NCBI GenBank assembly: GCA_018881555.1
Contig: JACAXG010000028.1
Span: forward strand, 1,088,006 to 1,152,005
Length of the DNA stretch: 64,000 nucleotides
Source: Amblyornis subalaris
Taxonomy: Eukaryota; Chordata; Aves; Passeriformes; Ptilonorhynchidae
Direction: 5' to 3'
This document shows, in pieces, positions 12,893-49,589 of the stretch. Within the stretch, counting starts at the first letter, position 1. Every line of letters begins with the position of its first letter. The position numbers and the translations under genes are program-made. A model generated the notes under the pieces. It did no database searches and was not told the origin of the DNA. It saw only the letters and a program-made list of their open reading frames with translations.

Positions 12893-15800
12893 AGCTCCTG
12901 GGATCGGCAAAGAAAGTCAATGTCAACTTCCAAGACACCGACGGGTGAGTGGGAGCTCCAAGCCCAGGTCTGGGTGCTGTGGATGTGTGCCATGGGTGCT
13001 GTGAGCAGCAGTGCACATGTGTGGGAATCTGGTGTGTATCTGTTGGAATGCCAGGCTCTCCGAGCTGCCAGGTCCAGTGCCATGGCTCTGGCCCCCATCA
13101 GCCCATGAGGCTGAGCCCTGCNTGCACCCAGAGCCAGCGCTGGCCTGGAGCAGCCGCGGGCACCAGAGGAGGCAGAGGAAAGGCTGTGCCCCACATCTCA
13201 CCACCCTTTTCCCAGCCCCGTGGGGCTCTGNGGGCGCCGTGCAGGGCTCAGCCCTGTGGGGTGCCGGGTGTGAGAGTCCNGACCCCGCCGGGCTGTGCCG
13301 CCGGCGCGACGCTCCAGAGCCGCATCCAACGGGCGGGAGCAGCGGGAGAGGGGCCGCAGGCTGACCCCTGCTAATCACACTAATGAGGCTGCGGGGGAGG
13401 GACCGGGGCCCCGCGCAGGAGGGGGCTGCGCTGGGAGCGCTGCTTGTGGGGCTGGGCAGCAGCCGCCCCTGTGCCCCCCGGCTCCTCCCACCCCATGATG
13501 TCCCCTTGAGTGGGACAGCAGGACGGTGCCACTTGGTCCCTNGGGATGGCTCTGCTGTGGCCATGGAAATGCCAGTGAGTGGAGTGGTTGGTCAGTAATG
13601 GGAGGCCATGCCCTGGGGACACATGGCCACAGCAGCACGGGTCCCTCCTCATCCTTNTCACCGGGGTAGTGGCAGCGGGCACCTCCTGGTCCCTGCCAGC
13701 CCATCGCTGTGCTGGGTGCACGTGTGAGTGGGCACGGGCACACGCGGGCCTGTGGCTGTGCAGCTGAGCATGGGCNTGCACCGAGCATGTCCGCGTGTGC
13801 AGCGTGGGCATGGGGCGGGGACAGCACTGCGCTGGGGTGGGGGGTGGGCAGGGCCAGGGGGCATCACCCCAGGGCCACCTCGTGCTCCGCAGAGCCGGCA
13901 GGTCACCGGAGGGCTGAGCACCACGCAGGGCTGGGTTGCTGCGGGCATGGCCCTGCTCGGATCCTGCTCCTGGAAGGCTCAGGGGGTGCGGGAGCAACAG
14001 GGGAGCGGCCTCTAGCCTGCAGCGCTGCTCCTGGAAAGGATCCCCTGGGGAGGCACGGGGCAGCCCCAGGCTGCAGCCTGCANGTGCTCGCTCTGCGTGG
14101 GCTCAGCCGGCCCCGTGCCTCGGTTTCCCCATCCCTGCCGTGCTGGCTCATTCCCGGCTGGAGGTGCCGTGGGCGAGCACCGTGCTGGTGTCCCCGCGTG
14201 TGCCCCGGGGACGGTGTCCTGCGCGTGGCCGAGGTGGCCGGCTGGGCCACGCCGTGCCCGAGGGAAGCCCCCGAGGCAGCCCCGGGGAGGGCTGCGATTT
14301 GCACCATCTTGAGCGGATTTGAGCAGGGCGCTGGAGCGGAAAATGTTGACATTTCCCAGGCAGACGTTGGGGATCGGCCTCCTGTGCGAGCTGTCTGCTC
14401 ACATCGCCGCTCCCCGCCGGGGATCGCAGGCGGCAGCTCCGTGGGGATCGCAGTGGCCAGAACGTGCTCCCCACGGGGACGTGTGCCCCTCAGCCGGGGG
14501 CCTGGATGGGGGGCAGAGGGATTGTCACCCCACACCTGTCCCTCGGGCACTGGGCAGCCACAGAGGCTGCGGGGCTCCGCAGCCCGTTCCCATGCTCTGG
14601 TGGCACCGGGGTGGCCCCGGGGATGGGATGGGGACGCTGTGCATGGCCAGGGCTCGGAGCAGCGGGGCGGTGGGTGCCAGCGCAGTTGCACGGAGGATGC
14701 TACCGCTGGGAGCACAAGTAGGTCAGCTCCTGGCCTGCTTCCCAGGCGGGAGCCTCCGGCTCCGGGAGCTGTGAGAGCAGAGCCGGCACGGGGCCGGGGG
14801 CTTTCCCCACCCTCGGCCACAACCGACACCGGGCAAGGGCAGCGCTGCCATCTGTGCTNGTGCCCGTGCTGCTGGGCCAGGCTGGGGGAAGTGGGTCAGT
14901 GGGGAGGGGAGGTCCCTGGCACCCCCACCCTCAGTGGGACACCCCTGTGCCTGCCCTGCCCACCCGCTACAGCCCTGTGGGGTCTCAGCATTCCCAGGGC
15001 TGTGGCAGCTCTTGCTCCAAAAGCCCACAGAGAGATGTGGAGGTGGGTTTGCTGGGGACATGTGGATGTGGAGGGCAGAGTAGGTGCCCTGGGGGGCTGC
15101 AGCGGTGCAGGTTTGAGGCCAGGGTGCCGGGCAGGGGTTGGCAGGGCCACAGAGTGGACGGGGCTGTGTCCCCCTGACACGACCCCGGATCCCAGGTTCT
15201 CAGCTCTGCACCATGCGGCGCTCAATGGCAACACAGAGCTCATCTCGCTGCTGCTGGAGGCACAGGCTGCCGTGGACATCAAGGACAACAAAGGCGAGTC
15301 CCCGGGTCCTGGCCGTGGCCCCCTGCCCTGTGCCCCTCCGCAGGCTCTGCCCGGTGTGTTGGCACCCGGGGGCTCACAGCACGCCCGTCCTGCCCCTGCA
15401 GGCATGCGGCCCCTGCACTATGCGGCCTGGCAGGGCAAGAAGGAGCCCATGAAAATGGTGCTGAAGGCGGGTTCCTCCGTGAACATCCCATCGGATGAGG
15501 GCCAGATCCCCCTGCACCTGGCGGCACAGCACGGGCACTACGACGTGGTACGGAGGGGCACGGGGGTGGTGAGGGGGATGATGCCACCCCCCCGCCCCTG
15601 CCCTCACCGTGTTGAGGTCTCGTTCCTCCGCAGTCAGAGATGCTCCTGCAGCACCAGTCCAACCCCTGCATCATGGACAACTCGGGGAAGACGCCCCTGG
15701 ACCTGGCGTGCGAGTTTGGCCGGGTCGGGGTAAGTCTTTGCAGGGCTGGGTCTCCCCAGAGGAGGACTGGGAGGGGACGGGGGCACAGCGAGGTCCCTGG

Positions 15801-16564: not shown

Positions 16565-19500
16565 GTAGGGGGTTGGGGGGCACAGAGTGGCACAGGGGAC
16601 NCCGGGCTGGGGGTGCCAAGTGGGATGAGTGGCTGGTGACGCTTCCCTTCTGTCCCGCAGATGCCTCTGCGGCTCTGCAGGTCCGGGCCGTCAAGGACTA
16701 TTGCAACAACTACGACCTGACCAGCCTCAACGTGAAAGCCGGGGACATCATCACCGTGAGTGCAGCCGGGGGGGCCGGGGACACCCCGGTGGTGGTGCCG
16801 GCCCCCGCCCCGGCCCCTGACCCGGCCCCTCCCGCAGGTGCTGGAGCAGCACGCGGACGGGCGCTGGAAGGGCTGCATCCACGACAACCGCACCGGCAAC
16901 GACCGCGTGGGCTACTTCCCCTCCAGCCTCGTCGAGGCCATAAGCAAACGAACAGGCAAATAATCCCCCCCACCCCCAGCCCCGGGGAGCCCCGTGTCTG
17001 GTGGGGACCGGGCTGTCGAGGGGTGCAGCGGTGAAGACAAACTGGGGCGATGCCCCTGATGCATGTGGGGTCGGTGTCCCCGCCGTGTGCAGGGGGATGG
17101 TGCCTTTGTGTGTGTGGGGTTGGTGTCCCCGTTATGCCTACGGGGCCAGTGTCCCATTGAGTGTGCAAGGTCTGTGTTCCCCTTGTGCCTGTGGGGTCAA
17201 TGCCCACGTAGTGCCCTTGGGGGTCAGTGCTGGCAGCCCCGGCATGTTCAAGGGTCAGTCCTGGCTGCCCTTGGGCCGGGGGAGGCGTTTGAGGTGTCGG
17301 GAGGTTGGCGCATGAGGAGACCCAGGGGTGTCACTGTGGTTTGGGGAGACTNGCGCAGAGGTGGGGCCACAGGAGCTGGTGCTCGGGGTCTGTGCAGGGG
17401 CTGGGCGCCAGTGCCAGGGACCCAATGCTGCCACACGGAGACCCTCTCTCCAGCCAGGGGCCATCTNGGGGATCGGCCCCGGCTCCCCTGCCCTGCGGCT
17501 GCCTGTCCCTGTCCCCATTCCCACCCTCATCCCTTTAGGCTCCTGATGGGGCCTGCAGCCCCTCAGGATGTCCCATGGCTGCGCCCACTGCCAGGAGTGT
17601 CATGATGGGGCTGGTGCCTCTGTGGGCAGCGTTGAAAGGCTCCACATCCTCCACCTCACCCCACCCCCGCGAGTGGATCTTGGGGGTGGCCACATCATGG
17701 GGACACGGGCAGGGAATGGTGGCACTTGAGCACTATCTCAAGGGAGTGGCAGCAGGAGTGGCTGCTGGGCACTCCACACCGGCCCTGGAGGCGCCGGGTG
17801 CCGGACAGGCAGGGGCAGAGCCACCCTCCAGGTGTGGGTTGCATCCCGGTACCACGGATGCCATCCATGGCTCCTGGGCTGTGGTCCACGGCTCCTGGGC
17901 TGTGGTCCACGGCTCCTGGGCTGTGGCTGGCCCACAGCAGTGTTAGCCAGGCTCTGGGGTTCTGTAGCCACCTTGTTGGCTGCAGTGGGGCAGCAGCGTG
18001 GGGTGCAGGCGCTGCGCCAGGCCTCGGCCAGCCGGACACGGGGGTGCCAGTGCTGAAGCCCCGGTTCCAGCTGTGCCTGCAGCTCCACTCCCCTGGGATG
18101 GCTCTGCAGGGAGCAGGACCCCGGCAGCCTGACTGTAGGAGCCCCATGGGCTGGCACGTGGGGCTGTCCCAGTGTCCGAGTGGGACCCGCGGGATGTGTC
18201 CGTACCCTGNGCCGGGCTGTGCGTGCGCTGAGCTCGTGCTGCTGCTCCTCAGCTTGGCTCCGCATCGGTTGGGTCTCAGTTCTGCCTTCTCCACATTCCT
18301 TTGGTTGCTTTTTTTGATTTACTGCTTTTTTCCCCCCCTTTCTTTTATTTTCTTTTCTTTTCTTTTCTTTCCTTTTTTCTTTTTTTTTCGGCAGCGCTGA
18401 GCGTGTCTCTATTATTTTGATTCTTTTCATTTTGTCTCTTGTTATGTTTTATTATCAGGTTCATGGGAGACTGTAACAATCCCCCAACACTTCCAAAAGA
18501 TCCCGCTCCCGGCTTACGGGGCTGCTGTGCTAAACGGTGACGCCTCGTCCCATCCGTTCCATTCCCTGCCTCCACCTCCACCTCCACCACCACATTCCCA
18601 TCAGACTCTTTTCAGTTCCTTTGGCTATCACAGGCTCTCCCCTAGCAGTGCCGACGAGCCNCGTTACGGACAAGGTAGTTCACCGCTCGCTTTGTGCTCT
18701 CCATGGATTTTCCTTTCTTTCCCTTTGAAGCGTGTGTCGAGTCTTTTCTCTCTGCTCGGCCTCTCCCCTCGCCGGGGCGTTGCAGGGTGTGTGTGTGTGC
18801 ATGCAGCGTGTGCATGCGTGTGCATGCGTGTGGTGGGGGCAGTGGGGGCACACGGGTGGCACACTCGTGCCATCGGCCCTGCCACGCACCCGCTCCAGCG
18901 CCGCTGTCACACCGAGCGTCCCGCGGCTCCGCTGCCACCGCATCCCACCCTCCCCAGCCCGGTGTCCCTGCACTCTGCCCGTGGCCCCTGCGCTGCTGTG
19001 CGGGTGCGTGGGGACCTCCAAAGCACTCCCACGGCTCTGTGCCAGGAGCAGGGCTGGCAGCGTGGTGCCTGGATGGAAGCCACGGGCACAGGGACCCTCC
19101 ACTGGCTGCAGCCNCCCCTCAAGGCCCGGCTCTGACCAGGTCGGGGCTGCACACGCGGAGCTGGAAAGGGCTGTGGAGCTGGAAGGGGCTGTGGCACTGG
19201 GGGCTTTCCCGGGGGATGCTCTTGGGGCTGGCTCAGCACAGGCAGAGCCCAGCTGAACCCTGGGGACCGTCAGGTGACACAGGCAGGTGACGGATGCTGC
19301 AGGTCTGTGCGTCGGGAGTGCCTGGGAGCTGGGGGGTTGCAGGGGTGCAGCCCTTGCCGTGCCCCAGGGGCTGCCCTGCTGGCTGGGCCAGGGGTCTTTG
19401 CACGTGCCCTGGTGGCAGTGGCCAAGGAGGTTGTGCTGGGGAGCACCACACAAGTGGCCGTGCTGGCAGTGGGGACAAGGGAGCACTTATTTTCCCCAGG

Positions 19501-22500
19501 GTTTTCTCTCCTGGTGGGTGGCACGGGCATATGCCCAGGTTCCTCCCGGTGTGACCGTGGCACGTGCAGCTCAGGGATGTCCCAGCCTGATTTGGTGTGG
19601 CCATTTGTCCCCCGCTGTGCTCCTTCAGTGACTTTATCACCCTGTACCACCTGTCCCCTGCTGCAGCTGGTGCTGACGGGGTGAGCAGCTCCGTGAACGG
19701 AACTGGCCCGGTTGGCAGTGGGGTGACAATGTCCCACAGCTGGTGGCAGGGTGGCAGTGCCCCATGGCTGGCAGTGGGGTGGTAATGCCCTATGGCTGGT
19801 GGCGGGGTGGCAGTGCCCCGTGGCTGGCAGGGCACTGACTGAGCTGCGGTGGGGCTGTGGCAGCACTGGCCTCATGGGGCTGTTGTCCATCTCATCTGAT
19901 GCTGTTTTAGTCCCTGGGCTCAGAGCCAGGTGTCCCTGGTGCCAGTGGGACCTGGCAGAGGTGGCCAGCATGGTGAGCTGGTGAGGAGCCTTGCCCAGGG
20001 GTGACTCTCAAGCAGTGCCCTGCAGGAGGGTGAGGGCCTCTCGTCCAGTGCTGTGTCTCTTGTGTGTCACTGGGGTTCAGCACCCTGTGCCTGGCCCCAC
20101 ATGGCCCCCGTGTGCCTCCAGACGGGTGGAGGCAGCTGCAGGGACACGGCCAACGCTGTCTGGGATGGGGGACCCTCGTTCCCACTGCTCGAGTTTGCCC
20201 AGCTCCCTTTGCTCCCTGCACTGGGTCATGGCCCCATCCTGTTCTGTGAAGGGATGACACGGTCCCTGTCCCTTGTCCAGGCTCAGCCAGGGCACTGGAA
20301 CATCCCACCATGGGTCTGTCCCCAGCTGGTGGTAGGGAGAGGATGCTCTGCACAACCGGGCCCAGGGCTGGTCACTGTCACCCCACGCCAGCTTGGGGTG
20401 GGACAGGCCCCCAGGACGGCTCTGGCACCCCTGGGCGAGGACACAGCCGGGGTCTGCACATCTTCCCTGCGGGGCTGTCCCTGCGTGTGGCGGCGCCGGG
20501 CCCCGGGGCCATGGATCACCCGTGCCACAGCCGNGTGAGCCCGAGCGCGGAGCCGCGCGCCTGACGGCCACTCTCTCTGCTCTGCCACCAAGGGTCCCGN
20601 GGGGCCGACATGAGCCCGTCCCACCTGTCGCCGTCGCAGGGCGGATCGGCCGCGCCAGCGCCCACCGAGGAGATCTGGGTGCTGCGGAAACCCTTCGCAG
20701 GTACGGCGGGAGCGCGGCTGGGACCCTCCCTGTCCGGGACCCTCCCTGTCCCTGGGGAGCGCGTGCCAGGACGCGGCGGCGGCTCCAGCGGGGCCTGGCC
20801 GCAGCGCGGTGTCCCCTGAGGGCGGGGCTCGGTGCCCTGACAGCCTCTCCTCTCCCTGTGCAGGTGGCGACCGCAGCAGCCTGGGCAGCACGGGCAGCGT
20901 GGCCTCTGCGCGCAGCTCGGGGAGCGGGCAGAGCGCGGGCAGCGGGGCGCACGCCCTGCACGCCGGCTCCGAAGGCGTCAAGGTAAGGCCAGCCCCGAGG
21001 CGGCCGCGCCAGCTGCCGTGGCACTTGGCTCCAGTCCTGGCAGCATCTGCTGCCCCTGGCCTCAGCTGGGATTGATGCTTGACCGGGTGCTGGGCAGTTC
21101 CATCGGTGCCCAGCCTGCCACCAGCCACGCTGTCACCAGCAGTGGCCTCCAGCGTGTCTGCTCCAACCTGCCCCTGACTGCTGCCTGGGCTCAGCCCCCG
21201 GCACAACATTCCACAGGTCCATCCGGGGCTGCTGTGCCATGTCTCTGCTGCCGCTCACAGGGGCCTCTGCACCGCCCTGCCCTGCACACGCTGCTGCCAC
21301 CGGCACGGCACACTGCCACCAGCACCCTGCGCTGCTGCCACCGGCACACTGCACGGCACACGCTGCTGCCACCAGCACGGCACACCGCCACCAGTGCACT
21401 GCTGCCACCGGCATGGCACACTGCCACCAGCACCACGCACTGCTGCCACCAGCACAGCACGCTGCCACCGGCACCACGCGCTGCTGCCACCGGCACACCG
21501 CACCGCACGCTGCCCTGACACCACTGGCACGCAGCCGCTGGCACACGGCCCCCCGCACTGTGTGCGCTGCCCCTGGGCTGTGCCATTCCCCGACCCCGGC
21601 ACCCGCCAGCCCCCGTGCCCTGGCACCCTGCCTGCCATGCCCACGTGCCCCGGAGGGGCTCCGTGTTGTGGGCACAGGGGACCCCACGGCCAGTGCCGGC
21701 AGCCTGGGCTGGGCACGTGCCAGGCTGGGTTTGGGGTGCGGCGGTGCCGTGGGCTCCTGCTGCCGGCAAAGCACCATCTGCTGCTCCCGCGGCTCCCGCT
21801 CTCCCCGCTGCAGCCGAAATCTGCTGCAACCCTCCCTGCCCACCCTCGCCCGAGCTGGTGGCACCCGCAGCACCCACAACACCCACAGCACCCGCCGCAT
21901 CCGCAGCATCCACGGTACCCGCGGCACCCGCGGCACCCGCGACACGCACCCCCCGGCCCGCCGGCCCCCTCCGCCCGCCTCACTCCTGCCTGCTCTCCCC
22001 CCTTCCCGGGGTGTTTTTCAGCTGCTGGCAACGGTCCTTTCCCAGAAGGCTTCTGCGCAAGAGTCTGCCGTGGGCGATGGGCCGGCCAAGGCGCAGGACA
22101 TCCCCGCAGGTGCGTGCTGCGGCCGCCCGGCTGCCGGAGCAGGAGGAGCCCTGGCCGTGCCGTGGATCCAGGGATTTGTCTTTTTTTTTATTGCCACGGC
22201 ACCCGTCGCCAGAAGAAAAACGTGTGGGTAAAAAATGACTCTCTCGCCTTTCGGCTGCTGCCAGGCCTTCTCCTGCCTCGGTTAGTGGGGGCCCGTGGGG
22301 GGCGGGGGGCGGCGTGGGGCGGGCAGGGGGGGCACCGCTGCTCCCCGGCCCCTTCCCTTCCCTGGCCCCCCGCCAGCCCTGCTGGAGCCCGAGCCGGGGT
22401 CCCCCCCCCGCCACCGCCGTCTGGGGGGCCGCGGGGAGCATGGCCACACCGCGGGGGTGCCCACGCCACGGGGGTGGCACGTGCCTGGGGAAGGGGGGGA

Positions 22501-22828
22501 CAGACGGGAGATGCACACGTGGGGGTGTGCGTGGGGGGATGCCCAGAGATGCCCGGGCTGCGGGGAGGGAGGAGGCTGCGGGCAGAGAAACCTGGGGAGG
22601 GGGATGCGCACAGGGGAGGGGGCGCGCACGTGGGGGGGGGGGGCCGCACACGCAGGGAGGGGGGTGCAGACGTTGCCAGGGAGAGGGGAAACATGCTGGA
22701 GCGATGCAGACGCAAGTGGGATGCAGACGTGAGGGAGATGCACACGGCAGAGGGATGCACATGTGAGGAGGATGCCCACGCGAGTGGGATGCAGATGCCC
22801 GAAGGATGCACATGTGAGGAGGATGCAC

Positions 22829-22890
<62 letters not shown>

Positions 22891-25800: not shown

Positions 25801-27706
25801 GGGCAGCGCGGGCAGCGTGCGCAGCATCGCGGCCATGCTGGAGATGTCCTCCATCGGCGGCGGGGCCCGCGCCCTGGCGCTGCAGAAGCCGCACGTGGCC
25901 GCCGGGCCGGGGCCGGTGCCGGTGCCGGCCAAGGCGTCCGAGAGCTACTACCTGCAGCCGGGACCCCCCCCGGGCAGCCCCGACCGCGCCCGCGTGGCCA
26001 CCGTGCTGGCCACCGTCAAGCATAAGGAGGCCATCGGGCTGGACGGGGAGGTGGTGAACCGGCGCCGGACCATCAGCGGCCCCGTCACCGGGCTGGTGGC
26101 GGCCGCCCGCCGCGAGCGCGCCGACAGCGTGCGGTCGGAGGCGGCCGCCGACGGCCCCGGCGAGCGGCTGCGGGTGGAGCGCGGCGGCTCCCCCGACGGC
26201 ATCCCCTTCGCCGAGGACGGCACCCTCACCATCAAGCAGCGGCCGCGGCCGCTGGGGCCGGCCCGGGGCGAGGCGGGCGAGGGGCTGTCCCCGGCACACC
26301 GCCACGGGGACCTGGCCAAGGTGGAGGCCAGCGCCACGCTCAAGCGGCGGATCCGGGCCAGGCAGAGCCAGCAGGACGGCGTCCGCTTCGTCCTCACCGA
26401 GTCCGACACCGTCAAGCGCCGGCCCAAAGTCAAGGACAAGGAGCCGGCGCTGGAGCCGGCCACGCTCGCCGTGTACCAGAACGGCACCGGCACCGTGAAG
26501 CGGCGGCCGGCCTCGGAGCTGAGCGGGGCCGAGCCGCCGCCCACCCCGCCGCCAGCCGCCCGCCCCGACGGCCCCGAGTACGTCCCGCCGCCCGCAGAGC
26601 CCAAGAAGCCCTTCAAGCCGCCGGTGTCCCCCAAGCCCGTGCTGACGCAGCCGCCTCAGAAGGTGCCTGGGCCGCCGGTGCCCGTCCCCAAAAAGGTGCC
26701 CATCCCGAGCCCCGGCAGCCCAGGTAGGTGCCCCGCCAGCCCCCTGGGACAGGCGCTCCCCGGGGCGCACGCCGGGGCTCCCATCCGGCCCCGCCGCCCT
26801 CCTGCCCCTCTCTCTTCTCTCCGCAGAGGTGAAGCGGGTCCACGGCACGCCGCCCCCGGTGTCCCCCAAGCCCACGCCGCCCCCCACGGCGCCCAAGCCC
26901 CCCAAGCCCCACGCCGCCATCCAGTCGGTGAGCGCCAGCTCCACGCCGGCCCCGTCGCCCGCCCGGCAGCTGAGCCCCGCGGCCAAGCCGTCCAGCACGC
27001 CGCCCTCGCTCTGCTCCAGCCCCGCCAAGCCCCTCTCGCCCGGCGCGCAGCCCCAGCAGGTGCCGGTGAAGCCGCCGCGCTCCACCATCGCCAGCCCGTC
27101 CGTCGACAGTGCCGGCCCCGAGCTGGCGCAGCAGAAGCTGGAGGAGACGAGCGCGTCCCTGGCCGCCGCGCTGCAGGCTGTGGAGGAGAAGATCAAGCAG
27201 GAGGACAGTCAGGCGGCAGAGTAAGGGGGTGCAGGGGTGGGTGGTGGTCCCCAGGGAGGGTGTGAGGCCACTCGGTGCCACCTAGCACAGGAGGCCACAA
27301 GGACCGCGGGCAGAGGTCGGGCTGTGCCACCACGGTGGGAGTGGGATGGTGCTGGGGTGATGCTGGAGGACACTGGTAGAGCATCACTGGGGAGGTGACA
27401 CTGAGGGACACCTTGCTGGGGCACCTGGGCATGTGGGTGCACTGTCTTGGAGAGGGAACGCTGAGGACATGGAGCTGGAGCACTGTGCGGTGGCGCTGGG
27501 GACACTGACCGCAGGGCAGAGGGGCAGGAGGGCCGTGCCGCGGGGCGGAGGGGGCTGTGCCGTGTCCCCGTCCCGGACGCTGCCCTGACCCGTCCCTGTC
27601 GCTCCCCAGCTCGGCCGTGGAGTCGAAGAGCACCGTGAGCATCCTGGACGACATCGGCAGCATGTTCGACGACCTGGCGGACCAGCTGGATGCCATGCTG
27701 GAGTGA
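12893..27706 (+). CDS. CASKIN1: CASKIN1, CASK-interacting scaffold protein 1, 5'-incomplete multi-exon coding region
   Basis: Neuronal multidomain scaffold that binds CASK at synapses (family knowledge). Coding exons read from sequence, numbered assuming one exon upstream: 12893-12944, 15196-15293, 15402-15547, 15634-15729, 15989-16119, 16190-16298, 16456-16564, 16661-16755, 16838-16955, optional 18459-18674, 20593-20700, 20864-20982, 22022-22109, 23466-23563, 23688-23798, 23866-23967, 24394-24532, 24603-26723, 26827-27220, 27610-27706. All phases join without a stop, giving 1442 residues without the optional exon and 1514 with it; human CASKIN1 is about 1431. Order: ankyrin repeats, SH3, CASK-binding motif, two SAM domains, proline-rich region, conserved tail ending DQLDAMLE. 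The first coding exon (usually starting MGKEQEL) was not found and must lie upstream or in an assembly gap. CASKIN2 is the alternative, but the adjacency to TRAF7 and the residue match favour CASKIN1. Confidence 0.95.
12945..15195 (+). other. CASKIN1: CASKIN1 intron 2
   Basis: 2.25-kb GC-rich intron with about eight single Ns. No repeat family, RNA gene or extra exon recognised. Confidence 0.6.
16661..16955 (+). CDS. CASKIN1: CASKIN1 SH3-domain exons (exons 9-10)
   Basis: Exons 16661-16755 and 16838-16955 encode one SH3 domain, residues about 250-312 of the partial protein, running from [10 protein letters not shown] through the central RWKGCIHD segment to [12 protein letters not shown]. The ALxDY-like element and the terminal YFPSS are SH3 hallmarks, although the first reads VKDYCNNY rather than ALYDY, as in the mammalian protein. 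Exon 10 ends at aca-g and the next intronic bases are gcaaat, so the donor is GC. Unspliced reading adds GK and then TAA at 16961-16963. Confidence 0.93.
17050..17265. repeat. Degenerate tandem repeat in a CASKIN1 intron
   Basis: TGTGGGGTCGGTGTCCCCG-like units recur about every 36-38 bp, roughly six copies, right after the GC-donor exon. Confidence 0.6.
17867..17930. repeat. 21-bp triplicate repeat
   Basis: Three near-identical copies of GGCTCCTGGGCTGTGGTCCAC. Confidence 0.85.
18299..18389 (+). promoter_or_regulatory. CTTTT-rich pyrimidine tract upstream of the CASKIN1 cassette exon
   Basis: About 90 nt almost wholly T and C, with repeated CTTTT units. It ends in a decoy acceptor CGGCAG (AG at 18393-18394). 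Use of the decoy would run into TGA within nine codons. CU-rich tracts of this type bind polypyrimidine-tract-binding proteins that control neuronal exons (family knowledge); binding here is inference. Confidence 0.5.
18459..18674 (+). CDS. CASKIN1: Candidate CASKIN1 cassette exon, proline-rich, 72 codons
   Basis: Open, unannotated-looking exon of exactly 216 nt, phase 1 at both ends, between the SH3 exon and the CASK-motif exon. Its acceptor is TTTTATTATCAG and its donor CAAG|GTAGTT. The preceding exon leaves one G, so the junction codon is GGT and the reading starts [21 protein letters not shown], continues [15 protein letters not shown], then L followed by eight prolines and HSHQ, and ends near SADEPRYGQ. 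No stop occurs, and the downstream junction restores GSRG as in the skipped form. A long CTTTT-rich pyrimidine tract lies 70-160 nt upstream. The exon is less GC-rich than its surroundings, which fits constraint. One N at 18661 falls in a proline codon third position. I infer an optional exon; transcript support was not available. Confidence 0.75.
18675..20592 (+). other. CASKIN1: CASKIN1 intron between cassette exon and CASK-motif exon
   Basis: GC-rich, with a TGTGTGCATG-type simple repeat near 18787-18835 and a degenerate tandem repeat at 19711-19830. No exon recognised. Confidence 0.55.
19711..19830. repeat. Degenerate tandem repeat in a CASKIN1 intron
   Basis: Variants of GGCAGTGGGGTGNNAATGCC and CATGGCTGGTGGCAGG alternate about four times. 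Confidence 0.6.
20593..20982 (+). CDS. CASKIN1: CASKIN1 CASK-interaction exons (exons 12-13)
   Basis: Exons 20593-20700 and 20864-20982. The first carries [12 protein letters not shown], matching the [12 protein letters not shown] motif by which Caskin-1 and Mint1 bind the CaM-kinase domain of CASK (family knowledge). The second is a Ser/Gly-rich linker ending [11 protein letters not shown], conserved with mammals. One N at 20600 is in an arginine codon third position and does not change the protein. The acceptor of exon 12 ends CCACCAAG, not the usual CAG. Confidence 0.92.
21280..21515. repeat. CTGCTGCCACCGGCAC-type minisatellite
   Basis: Short units CTGCCACC(A/G)GCAC recur more than a dozen times at about 15- and 30-bp steps within the intron after CASKIN1 exon 13. 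Confidence 0.8.
21858..21950. repeat. 9-bp GCACCCGCG repeat
   Basis: About ten degenerate copies of GCACCCGCA/GCACCCGCG, ending about 70 nt before the acceptor of CASKIN1 exon 14. Confidence 0.75.
22022..23563 (+). CDS. CASKIN1: CASKIN1 linker exons (exons 14-15)
   Basis: Exons 22022-22109 ([15 protein letters not shown] to DIPA) and 23466-23563 ([18 protein letters not shown] to PSEGK) encode a low-complexity Ser/Pro linker between the CASK-interaction segment and the first SAM domain. LLATVLSQK is identical to what I recall of the mammalian protein. The 1.36-kb intron between them holds a large simple and degenerate tandem repeat block. Confidence 0.9.
22500..22825. repeat. Degenerate GATGCACACGTG-type tandem repeat
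   Basis: GATGCACA/GATGCAGA followed by CGTGAGG-like stretches recur about every 15-30 bp up to the CA microsatellite. Confidence 0.7.
22826..22887. repeat. (CA)n microsatellite
   Basis: About 28 CA units with one interrupting A (CACAAACAC). Confidence 0.95.
23688..24680 (+). CDS. CASKIN1: CASKIN1 tandem SAM domains (exons 16-19 start)
   Basis: SAM1 is coded by 23688-23798 and 23866-23967, with [17 protein letters not shown], then [23 protein letters not shown]2 is coded by 24394-24532 and the start of the exon at 24603, with [20 protein letters not shown], then [20 protein letters not shown]. Tandem SAM domains of Caskin proteins polymerise into fibres (family knowledge). Introns at 23799-23865 and 24533-24602 are only 67 and 70 nt long. 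Confidence 0.95.
24603..26723 (+). CDS. CASKIN1: CASKIN1 large proline-rich exon 19
   Basis: A single 2121-nt exon. It ends SAM2 and then codes a long, disordered Pro/Ser/Arg-rich region with islands conserved in mammals: [102 protein letters not shown] and [15 protein letters not shown]. Many PxxP stretches are potential SH3 ligands. The exon is strongly GC-biased, so long antisense open frames mirror it; they are not genes. It contains no N bases. Confidence 0.95.
26827..27706 (+). CDS. CASKIN1: CASKIN1 C-terminal exons 20-21
   Basis: Exon 26827-27220 continues the proline-rich region ([15 protein letters not shown]) and enters the conserved tail with [20 protein letters not shown]. Its donor is GCAGA|GTAAGG. 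Final exon 27610-27706 codes [19 protein letters not shown], then [12 protein letters not shown] and TGA at 27704-27706. This acidic amphipathic tail is the Caskin C-terminal family domain. The intervening intron is 389 nt. Confidence 0.95.

Positions 27707-30501: not shown

Positions 30502-49589
<19,088 letters not shown>

What the first reader, a model, noticed from the sequence alone, without database searches (positions are those of the whole stretch)
18459..18674. Possible undescribed in-frame cassette exon of CASKIN1 between the SH3 domain and the CASK-binding motif
A 216-nt open exon with good splice sites and phase 1 at both ends. It would insert 72 residues, including a run of eight prolines, immediately before the CASK-interaction segment. 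Skipping and inclusion both keep the frame, and the skipped junction gives the GSR known from mammals. The exon is AT-richer than its surroundings, suggesting constraint. The mammalian reference protein, as I recall it, lacks this segment. An insert here could alter SH3 access or CASK binding.
Basis: partly seen in the sequence, partly recalled or inferred. Interest (0 to 1): 0.75.

Follow-up and report, generated by a model that had tools for sequence, protein, structure and literature searches.

The report
Ancient CASKIN1 cassette exon, already annotated
The 216-base stretch is a genuine optional exon of the synapse-scaffold gene CASKIN1 that has been kept from sharks to birds; gene databases already list protein versions with and without it, but no paper found here describes what its very constant proline-and-aromatic core does.

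Summary
18459-18674 is a 216-nt exon, phase 1 at both ends; inclusion and skipping both keep the CASKIN1 frame. It is not undescribed in databases: automatic caskin-1 models of birds, crocodile, turtles, squamates, newt, frog, sturgeons, reedfish and skates contain it (46-100% identity), as do sharks, rays, gar, bowfins and four osteoglossomorph fishes. In four species two deposited models differ only at this exon. A 23-residue core, [16 protein letters not shown][ST]SFGYxR, is 83-87% identical between this bird and the skate and shark compared, like the SAM domains (81%); the rest of the exon is 41-51%. No mammalian protein was listed, but the searches cannot prove loss. The exon inserts 25 residues before the Pfam CASK-interaction domain and lies in a region without confident structure. 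Best mechanism: optional addition of a disordered docking motif beside the CASK-binding segment. The partner is unknown; EVH1 or another polyproline reader is a guess. An effect through the SH3 groove is unlikely, since that groove is reported absent in human Caskin1. No RNA reads were examined.

The parts
18459..18674 (+). Cassette exon of CASKIN1, 216 nt, phase 1/1, 72 residues GSWETV...RYGQ (split Gly codons at both ends)
   Evidence: Sequence and translation; conserved in vertebrate caskin-1 models; isoform pairs differing at this exon
18566..18634 (+). Codons of the conserved core [23 protein letters not shown] (protein residues 354-376 of the assembly)
   Evidence: 20/23 residues identical to white shark, 19/23 to skate, 22/23 to reedfish; LF[ST]SFGY in 41 of 41 aligned sequences
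18279..18458 (+). Long T-rich polypyrimidine tract and 3' splice site of the exon, with a degenerate TTTCT array at 18339-18389
   Evidence: Last 180 nt before the exon 59% T, against 9-19% before the other 18 exons compared; tandem repeat
18675..18680 (+). 5' splice site GTAGTT of the exon (7 of 9 consensus matches counting the three exon bases)
18798..18826 (+). Three TGCATG (RBFOX-type, recalled) motifs 124-152 nt downstream of the exon, inside a TGCATGCGTG tandem repeat
   Evidence: 3 of the 14 plus-strand TGCATG of the 64-kb window; the only place with three in 160 nt; tandem repeat
16838..16955 (+). Upstream exon (end of SH3 domain, ...[12 protein letters not shown]) ending at a GC donor
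   Evidence: Assembly and translation; SH3_2 match at residues 254-311
20593..20700 (+). Downstream exon, 108 nt, phase 1/1, GSRGADMS...[11 protein letters not shown], carrying the start of the CASK-interaction domain
   Evidence: PF16600 Caskin1-CID begins at residue 415 = EEIWVLRK; corresponding segment absent from 3 elasmobranch models

Best explanation
It is an ancient cassette exon of CASKIN1 (shown at the level of sequence and deposited gene models). When included, it adds 72 residues, probably disordered, between the SH3 domain and the CASK-interaction domain (position shown; disorder rests on a weak model). The added piece carries one strongly conserved linear motif, [13 protein letters not shown][PT]-LF[ST]SFGY-x-R (shown). 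The most likely working (inferred) is that inclusion adds a docking site for a polyproline-reading and/or aromatic-motif-reading partner right beside the CASK-binding segment, so that splicing decides whether Caskin1 brings that partner to the CASK/neurexin complex. Control of inclusion is probably neural, by a PTB-type tract upstream and RBFOX-type motifs downstream (inferred, weak).
For: Models with the exon in each jawed-vertebrate group named. The core is about as constant as the SAM domains while the rest of the exon drifts: skate core 19/23, rest 20/49, SAMs 104/129, C-terminal region 381/795; white shark core 20/23, rest 25/49, SAMs 105/129, C-terminal region 444/795 ('rest' is the exon total minus the core). 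H365, L368, F369, S371, F372, G373, Y374 and R376 are identical in 41 of 41 aligned sequences. Deposited isoform pairs differing only at this exon in Patagioenas, Coturnix, Pogoniulus and Dermochelys, so it is optional in annotation. The CID begins 26 positions after the last exon residue. pLDDT under 50 for residues 394-599 of the Corvus model, which hold the exon. T-rich tract and TGCATG cluster.
Against: No binding partner is known, and nothing in the exon matches a Pfam family above its cut-off or a solved structure at better than E 0.1. The optional status comes from deposited gene models; no RNA reads were seen. The ankyrin and SH3 regions are more constant than the core in skate and shark (89-91%). 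The TGCATG cluster lies in a short tandem repeat, the window as a whole has fewer TGCATG than shuffles, and conservation of these motifs in other species could not be checked. Polyproline runs arise easily. In the two squamates and the frog compared the core is more diverged (17-18 of 23).
Confidence: 0.7

Rival explanations
1. Spacer exon: it only lengthens the disordered linker between SH3 and the CASK-interaction domain, changing reach or geometry of CASK binding without recruiting a partner of its own.
For: No confident structure; lies 25 residues before the CID; length varies from 66 to 83 residues among the 41 aligned sequences.
Against: A pure spacer does not need LF[ST]SFGY in 41 of 41 sequences while neighbouring residues drift.
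Confidence: 0.15
2. Regulatory element for CASK binding in cis: the core folds back on the CID or SH3 and tunes CASK affinity.
For: Adjacency to the CID; in three elasmobranch models the next segment, which carries the CASK motif, is itself absent while this exon is kept, so this is a place where splicing can act on CASK binding.
Against: No confident structure in the model, which is itself poor in the SH3 region; human Caskin1 SH3 is reported to lack the canonical peptide groove (PMC7830187).
Confidence: 0.15
3. Constitutive exon in most lineages; exon-less models come from annotation guided by exon-less reference proteins, and the exon is always included in brain. (Not exclusive of a docking role.)
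For: No RNA reads were seen; exon-less models outnumber exon-bearing ones (106 of the 120 listed lack LFSSFGY), as such projection would give, but that query itself lacked the exon and so favoured such models.
Against: Same-species pairs with both forms under separate isoform names; the exon is symmetric in phase.
Confidence: 0.12
4. Chance open frame in an intron, not an exon.
For: The surrounding frame is open for 244 codons, so openness is cheap in this GC-rich window.
Against: 53-100% residue identity in every row other than squamates and frog (46-50% there), from skate to birds, with the same position and frame in the alignment.
Confidence: 0.01

Closest known systems
caskin-1 isoforms with the exon in deposited models (e.g. 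Coturnix japonica X3, Dermochelys coriacea X1, Pogoniulus pusillus X1)
   Same: Same exon, position and frame; 98, 74 and 95% identity in the exon plus six residues each side
   Different: Predicted models with no function attached as far as the listings show. The window's stretch is 100% identical to those of Ficedula and Corvus
Mammalian Caskin1 reference protein (rat 1430 and mouse 1431 residues, PMC6202847 passages)
   Same: Ankyrin repeats, SH3, SAM domains, proline-rich segment (PMC7830187 passage)
   Different: Its length fits the exon-less form; that it lacks the segment is recalled and was not tested on a mammalian sequence here
Neuronal RBFOX/PTB-controlled cassette exons of synaptic scaffolds (general class, recalled)
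   Same: Phase-symmetric, probably disordered, motif-bearing insert; T-rich tract upstream and TGCATG downstream
   Different: No splicing-factor binding or tissue data; at 216 nt it is not a microexon
EVH1 (Ena/VASP) ligand motif [FYWL]PxPP (regular expression recalled from ELM)
   Same: Match in 39 of 41 exon segments; the only match in the window protein is this one
   Different: Polyproline is degenerate; profilin, WW and SH3 readers fit as well; no binding data

Membership tests
CASKIN1 gene | Ankyrin repeats, SH3, Caskin1-CID, SAM domain(s), Caskin C-terminal end | tested here: met
   Ank, SH3_2, PF16600 and SAM_1 matches above cut-off in the first 598 of 1514 residues, the part scanned; second SAM region and C-terminal end read from the assembly, not scanned with Pfam; top BLASTP matches among the fetched proteins are avian caskin-1
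Protein-coding exon | Reading frame conserved between distant species | tested here: met
Cassette exon | Phase-symmetric, inclusion and skipping both in frame | tested here: met
   assembly
Cassette exon | Both isoforms occur in the same species | tested here: met
   At the level of deposited models only: of 7 pairs examined 4 differ only at this exon, 2 differ here and elsewhere, 1 is a garbled model
Cassette exon | Junction reads in RNA for both forms | not testable with these tools
   No RNA data held
RBFOX/PTB-regulated neural exon | TGCATG within about 200 nt downstream and CU-rich tract upstream (criterion recalled) | tested here: inconclusive
   Both present, but TGCATG lies in a tandem repeat and conservation of the motifs was not testable
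RBFOX/PTB-regulated neural exon | Inclusion depends on the factor or tissue | not testable with these tools
   No RNA data held
EVH1 ligand | [FYWL]PxPP motif conserved | tested here: met
   39 of 41; absent in Mixophyes and Scyliorhinus
EVH1 ligand | Binding to an EVH1 domain | not testable with these tools
   The match to an Enah-Abi1 chain at E 0.1 is not significant and rests mainly on polyproline
SH3 ligand in cis | Canonical groove in the Caskin1 SH3 | not tested
   Literature reports it absent (PMC7830187)

The most novel reading that the evidence does not exclude
A cassette exon present since the jawed-vertebrate ancestor adds a highly constrained linear motif ([16 protein letters not shown][ST]SFGYxR) that links Caskin1 to an unknown partner beside CASK, with regulated neural splicing, and mammals have lost it, so that mammalian Caskin1 studies have missed a function that other vertebrates keep.
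Probability: 0.3. Interest if true: 0.65.

Novelty: already known. Interest (0 to 1): 0.4.

Why it matters
The exon itself is catalogued in automatic gene models, so its discovery is not new. What the paper searches here did not turn up is that it is old, that its core is about as constant as a folded domain, and that it sits where splicing can alter what Caskin1 carries next to CASK. The structural and knock-out studies read in passages use human protein or mice. If mammals really lack the exon, a conserved interaction of this synaptic scaffold has been out of reach of the usual models, and a pull-down with the core peptide would test it.

Tried and rejected
Search of the window's own genome for the exon: not completed. 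Openness of the frame as evidence: rejected, the frame is open over 244 codons. AT-richness as constraint: rejected as an argument. PDB matches for the exon: E 0.1 and 4.4 only, polyproline. PDB match for the CASK motif peptide: none up to E 10. Pfam for the exon alone: three rows at E 0.019-0.27, all below cut-off. Literature (PMC open-licence library): 20 of 37 papers listed; 25 of 82; 9 of 9; 8 of 8; 0; 12 of 22; 2 of 2; 10 of 252, none of those 10 holding 'caskin1'; no listed title or abstract start concerned this exon. Passages were read in seven papers, the others were seen as listing only. The Stafford 2011 paper on the CASK-Caskin1 interface is not held. Loss in mammals and in most teleosts: left open. 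One search listed all 37 hits (of 699 candidates) and no mammal, but candidates must share exact words: the newt query (42 hits of 77 candidates) listed no bird although birds carry the exon, so a diverged mammalian version could be missed. One search listed only the best 120 of 1087 rows; none of those 120 was a mammal. The AlphaFold model (46 sequences, mean pLDDT 55.4, pTM 0.35) was too weak for a fold search; none was run.

Full report
What is there. The window carries CASKIN1 on the plus strand. I assembled 20 coding exons, from 12893 to the last exon starting at 27610, and obtained an open protein of 1514 residues with the exon in question; the extreme N-terminus was not assembled. Without the exon the protein has 1442 residues. 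The exon is 18459-18674, 216 nt, with acceptor ...TTTTATTATCAG|G and donor CAAG|GTAGTT; phases are 1 and 1, and both inclusion and skipping stay in frame. The upstream exon ends at a GC donor (16956-16957), as does the exon ending at 15293.

Is it more than chance? The open frame is not evidence, because it extends from 18401 to 19135. Conservation is. A search with residues 312-395 of the inclusion form (the exon plus six residues each side) gave 37 rows at E<=0.001, all listed, among 699 candidates. Of these 37, 34 carry a caskin or CASK-interacting-protein-1 name and three are 'unnamed' or 'hypothetical' (P0003, P0018, P0020). They cover birds, crocodile, turtles, squamates, newt, frog, sturgeons, paddlefish, reedfish and skates, at 46-100% identity. 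A second look with the newt exon gave 42 rows at E<=0.01, 32 of them new, adding sharks, rays, gar, bowfins and four osteoglossomorph fishes. If these are orthologous, as position and frame suggest, the exon goes back at least to the common ancestor of jawed vertebrates.

Is it optional? A search with the exon-less form gave 1087 rows, of which the best 120 were listed; 106 of those 120 lack the exon's LFSSFGY and 14 have it. The query itself lacked the exon, which favours exon-less models. In 93 of the 106 the SH3-to-CASK-motif linker could be parsed and is 23-51 residues; in 13 it could not. Seven same-species pairs were compared. Four differ only at this exon (Patagioenas A/B, Coturnix X3/X6, Pogoniulus X1/X4, Dermochelys X1/X2; in the last two the difference is 73 residues, in Pogoniulus because one further residue appears at the junction). 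Two differ here and elsewhere (Coturnix X3/X4, Pelodiscus X2/X7), and one is a garbled model (Pogona). I saw no RNA reads behind these models. So the cassette status is already recorded in databases, which removes 'undescribed' from the claim, although none of the paper searches turned up a publication on it (lists partly capped, see Tried and rejected).

What is constrained? In a MAFFT alignment of 41 sequences (the window plus 40 representatives that I chose out of 177 proteins fetched), the 23-residue core [23 protein letters not shown] is identical at 19 of 23 positions in skate, 20 in white shark and gar, 22 in reedfish and 21 in newt. The part of the exon before the core is 15-21 of 36 in those five species. 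[quoted passage not shown] the ankyrin and SH3 regions are higher, 89-91%. The two squamates (17 and 18 of 23) and the frog (17 of 23) compared are more diverged in the core. LF[ST]SFGY occurs in 41 of 41, a [FYWL]PxPP motif in 39 of 41, and five or more consecutive prolines in 39 of 41. The 40 relatives were all found through searches with the exon, so the set is biased towards recognisable versions.

Where it acts. Pfam's Caskin1 CASK-interaction domain begins at residue 415 (EEIWVLRK), with 25 residues between it and the last exon residue (389); the SH3 match ends at 311, with six residues between it and the exon's first residue (318). The AlphaFold model of the Corvus protein has pLDDT under 50 from 394 to 599, which includes the exon; the model is poor overall (mean 55.4, pTM 0.35), so it says only that no confident structure was found. 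The 2021 NMR paper on human Caskin1 SH3 (abstract and passages seen) reports that the proline-peptide groove is missing, which makes a cis SH3-polyproline contact unlikely (PMC7830187). Mint1, Caskin1, Tiam1 and liprin-alpha compete for the CASK CaMK domain (PMC10136522, passage seen). In three elasmobranch models (P0030, P0031, P0158) the segment of the next exon, with the CASK motif, is absent while this exon is kept; in the window that exon is 108 nt and phase 1/1, so the same is possible here in frame.

How it is probably controlled. The 180 nt before the exon are 59% T, against 9-19% before the other 18 exons compared. Three TGCATG lie 124-152 nt downstream, the only such cluster in the window, though the window as a whole has fewer TGCATG than shuffles (26 against a mean of 65) and the cluster is part of a 10-nt tandem repeat. 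This fits a neural exon held back by PTB-type and promoted by RBFOX-type factors; it is inference, and the roles of these factors are recalled.

Mammals. None of the three protein searches listed a mammalian protein (one search showed 120 of 1087 rows). Rodent Caskin1 has 1430-1431 residues (PMC6202847 passage), which fits the short form. But the searches depend on shared exact words and would miss a diverged exon, and I had no mammalian DNA. Loss in mammals is plausible but not shown.

Verdict. It is an already annotated exon of a known gene; the deep conservation of its core is the point worth following.

Noticed in passing
15294-15295 and 16956-16957: Two GC donors (AAAG|GCGAGT and ACAG|GCAAAT) among 19 donors of this gene. 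Three other avian models (P0098, P0124, P0127) seem to read through the second one (TGKY...), as if the gene finder did not accept GC.
   Followed up: partly
20591-20600: Several avian models (e.g. P0090-P0092, P0094, P0095, P0101) read TGRSRG instead of TGSRG at the junction with the CASK-motif exon, possibly an alternative acceptor three bases away or an annotation artefact.
   Followed up: no
P0030, P0031, P0158 (Amblyraja, Rhinoraja, Stegostoma): Isoform models that lack the CASK-interaction-motif segment while keeping this exon, which would yield Caskin1 without the start of its CASK-binding segment.
   Followed up: partly
P0015 residues 528-571 (Pelodiscus): A further 44-residue insert present in isoform X2 and absent from X7.
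   Followed up: no
31173-31841, minus strand: WD40-repeat coding sequence (PF00400) on the opposite strand just downstream of CASKIN1; TRAF7 by recalled synteny.
   Followed up: partly
about 22826-22887: Long CA repeat in a CASKIN1 intron.
   Followed up: no
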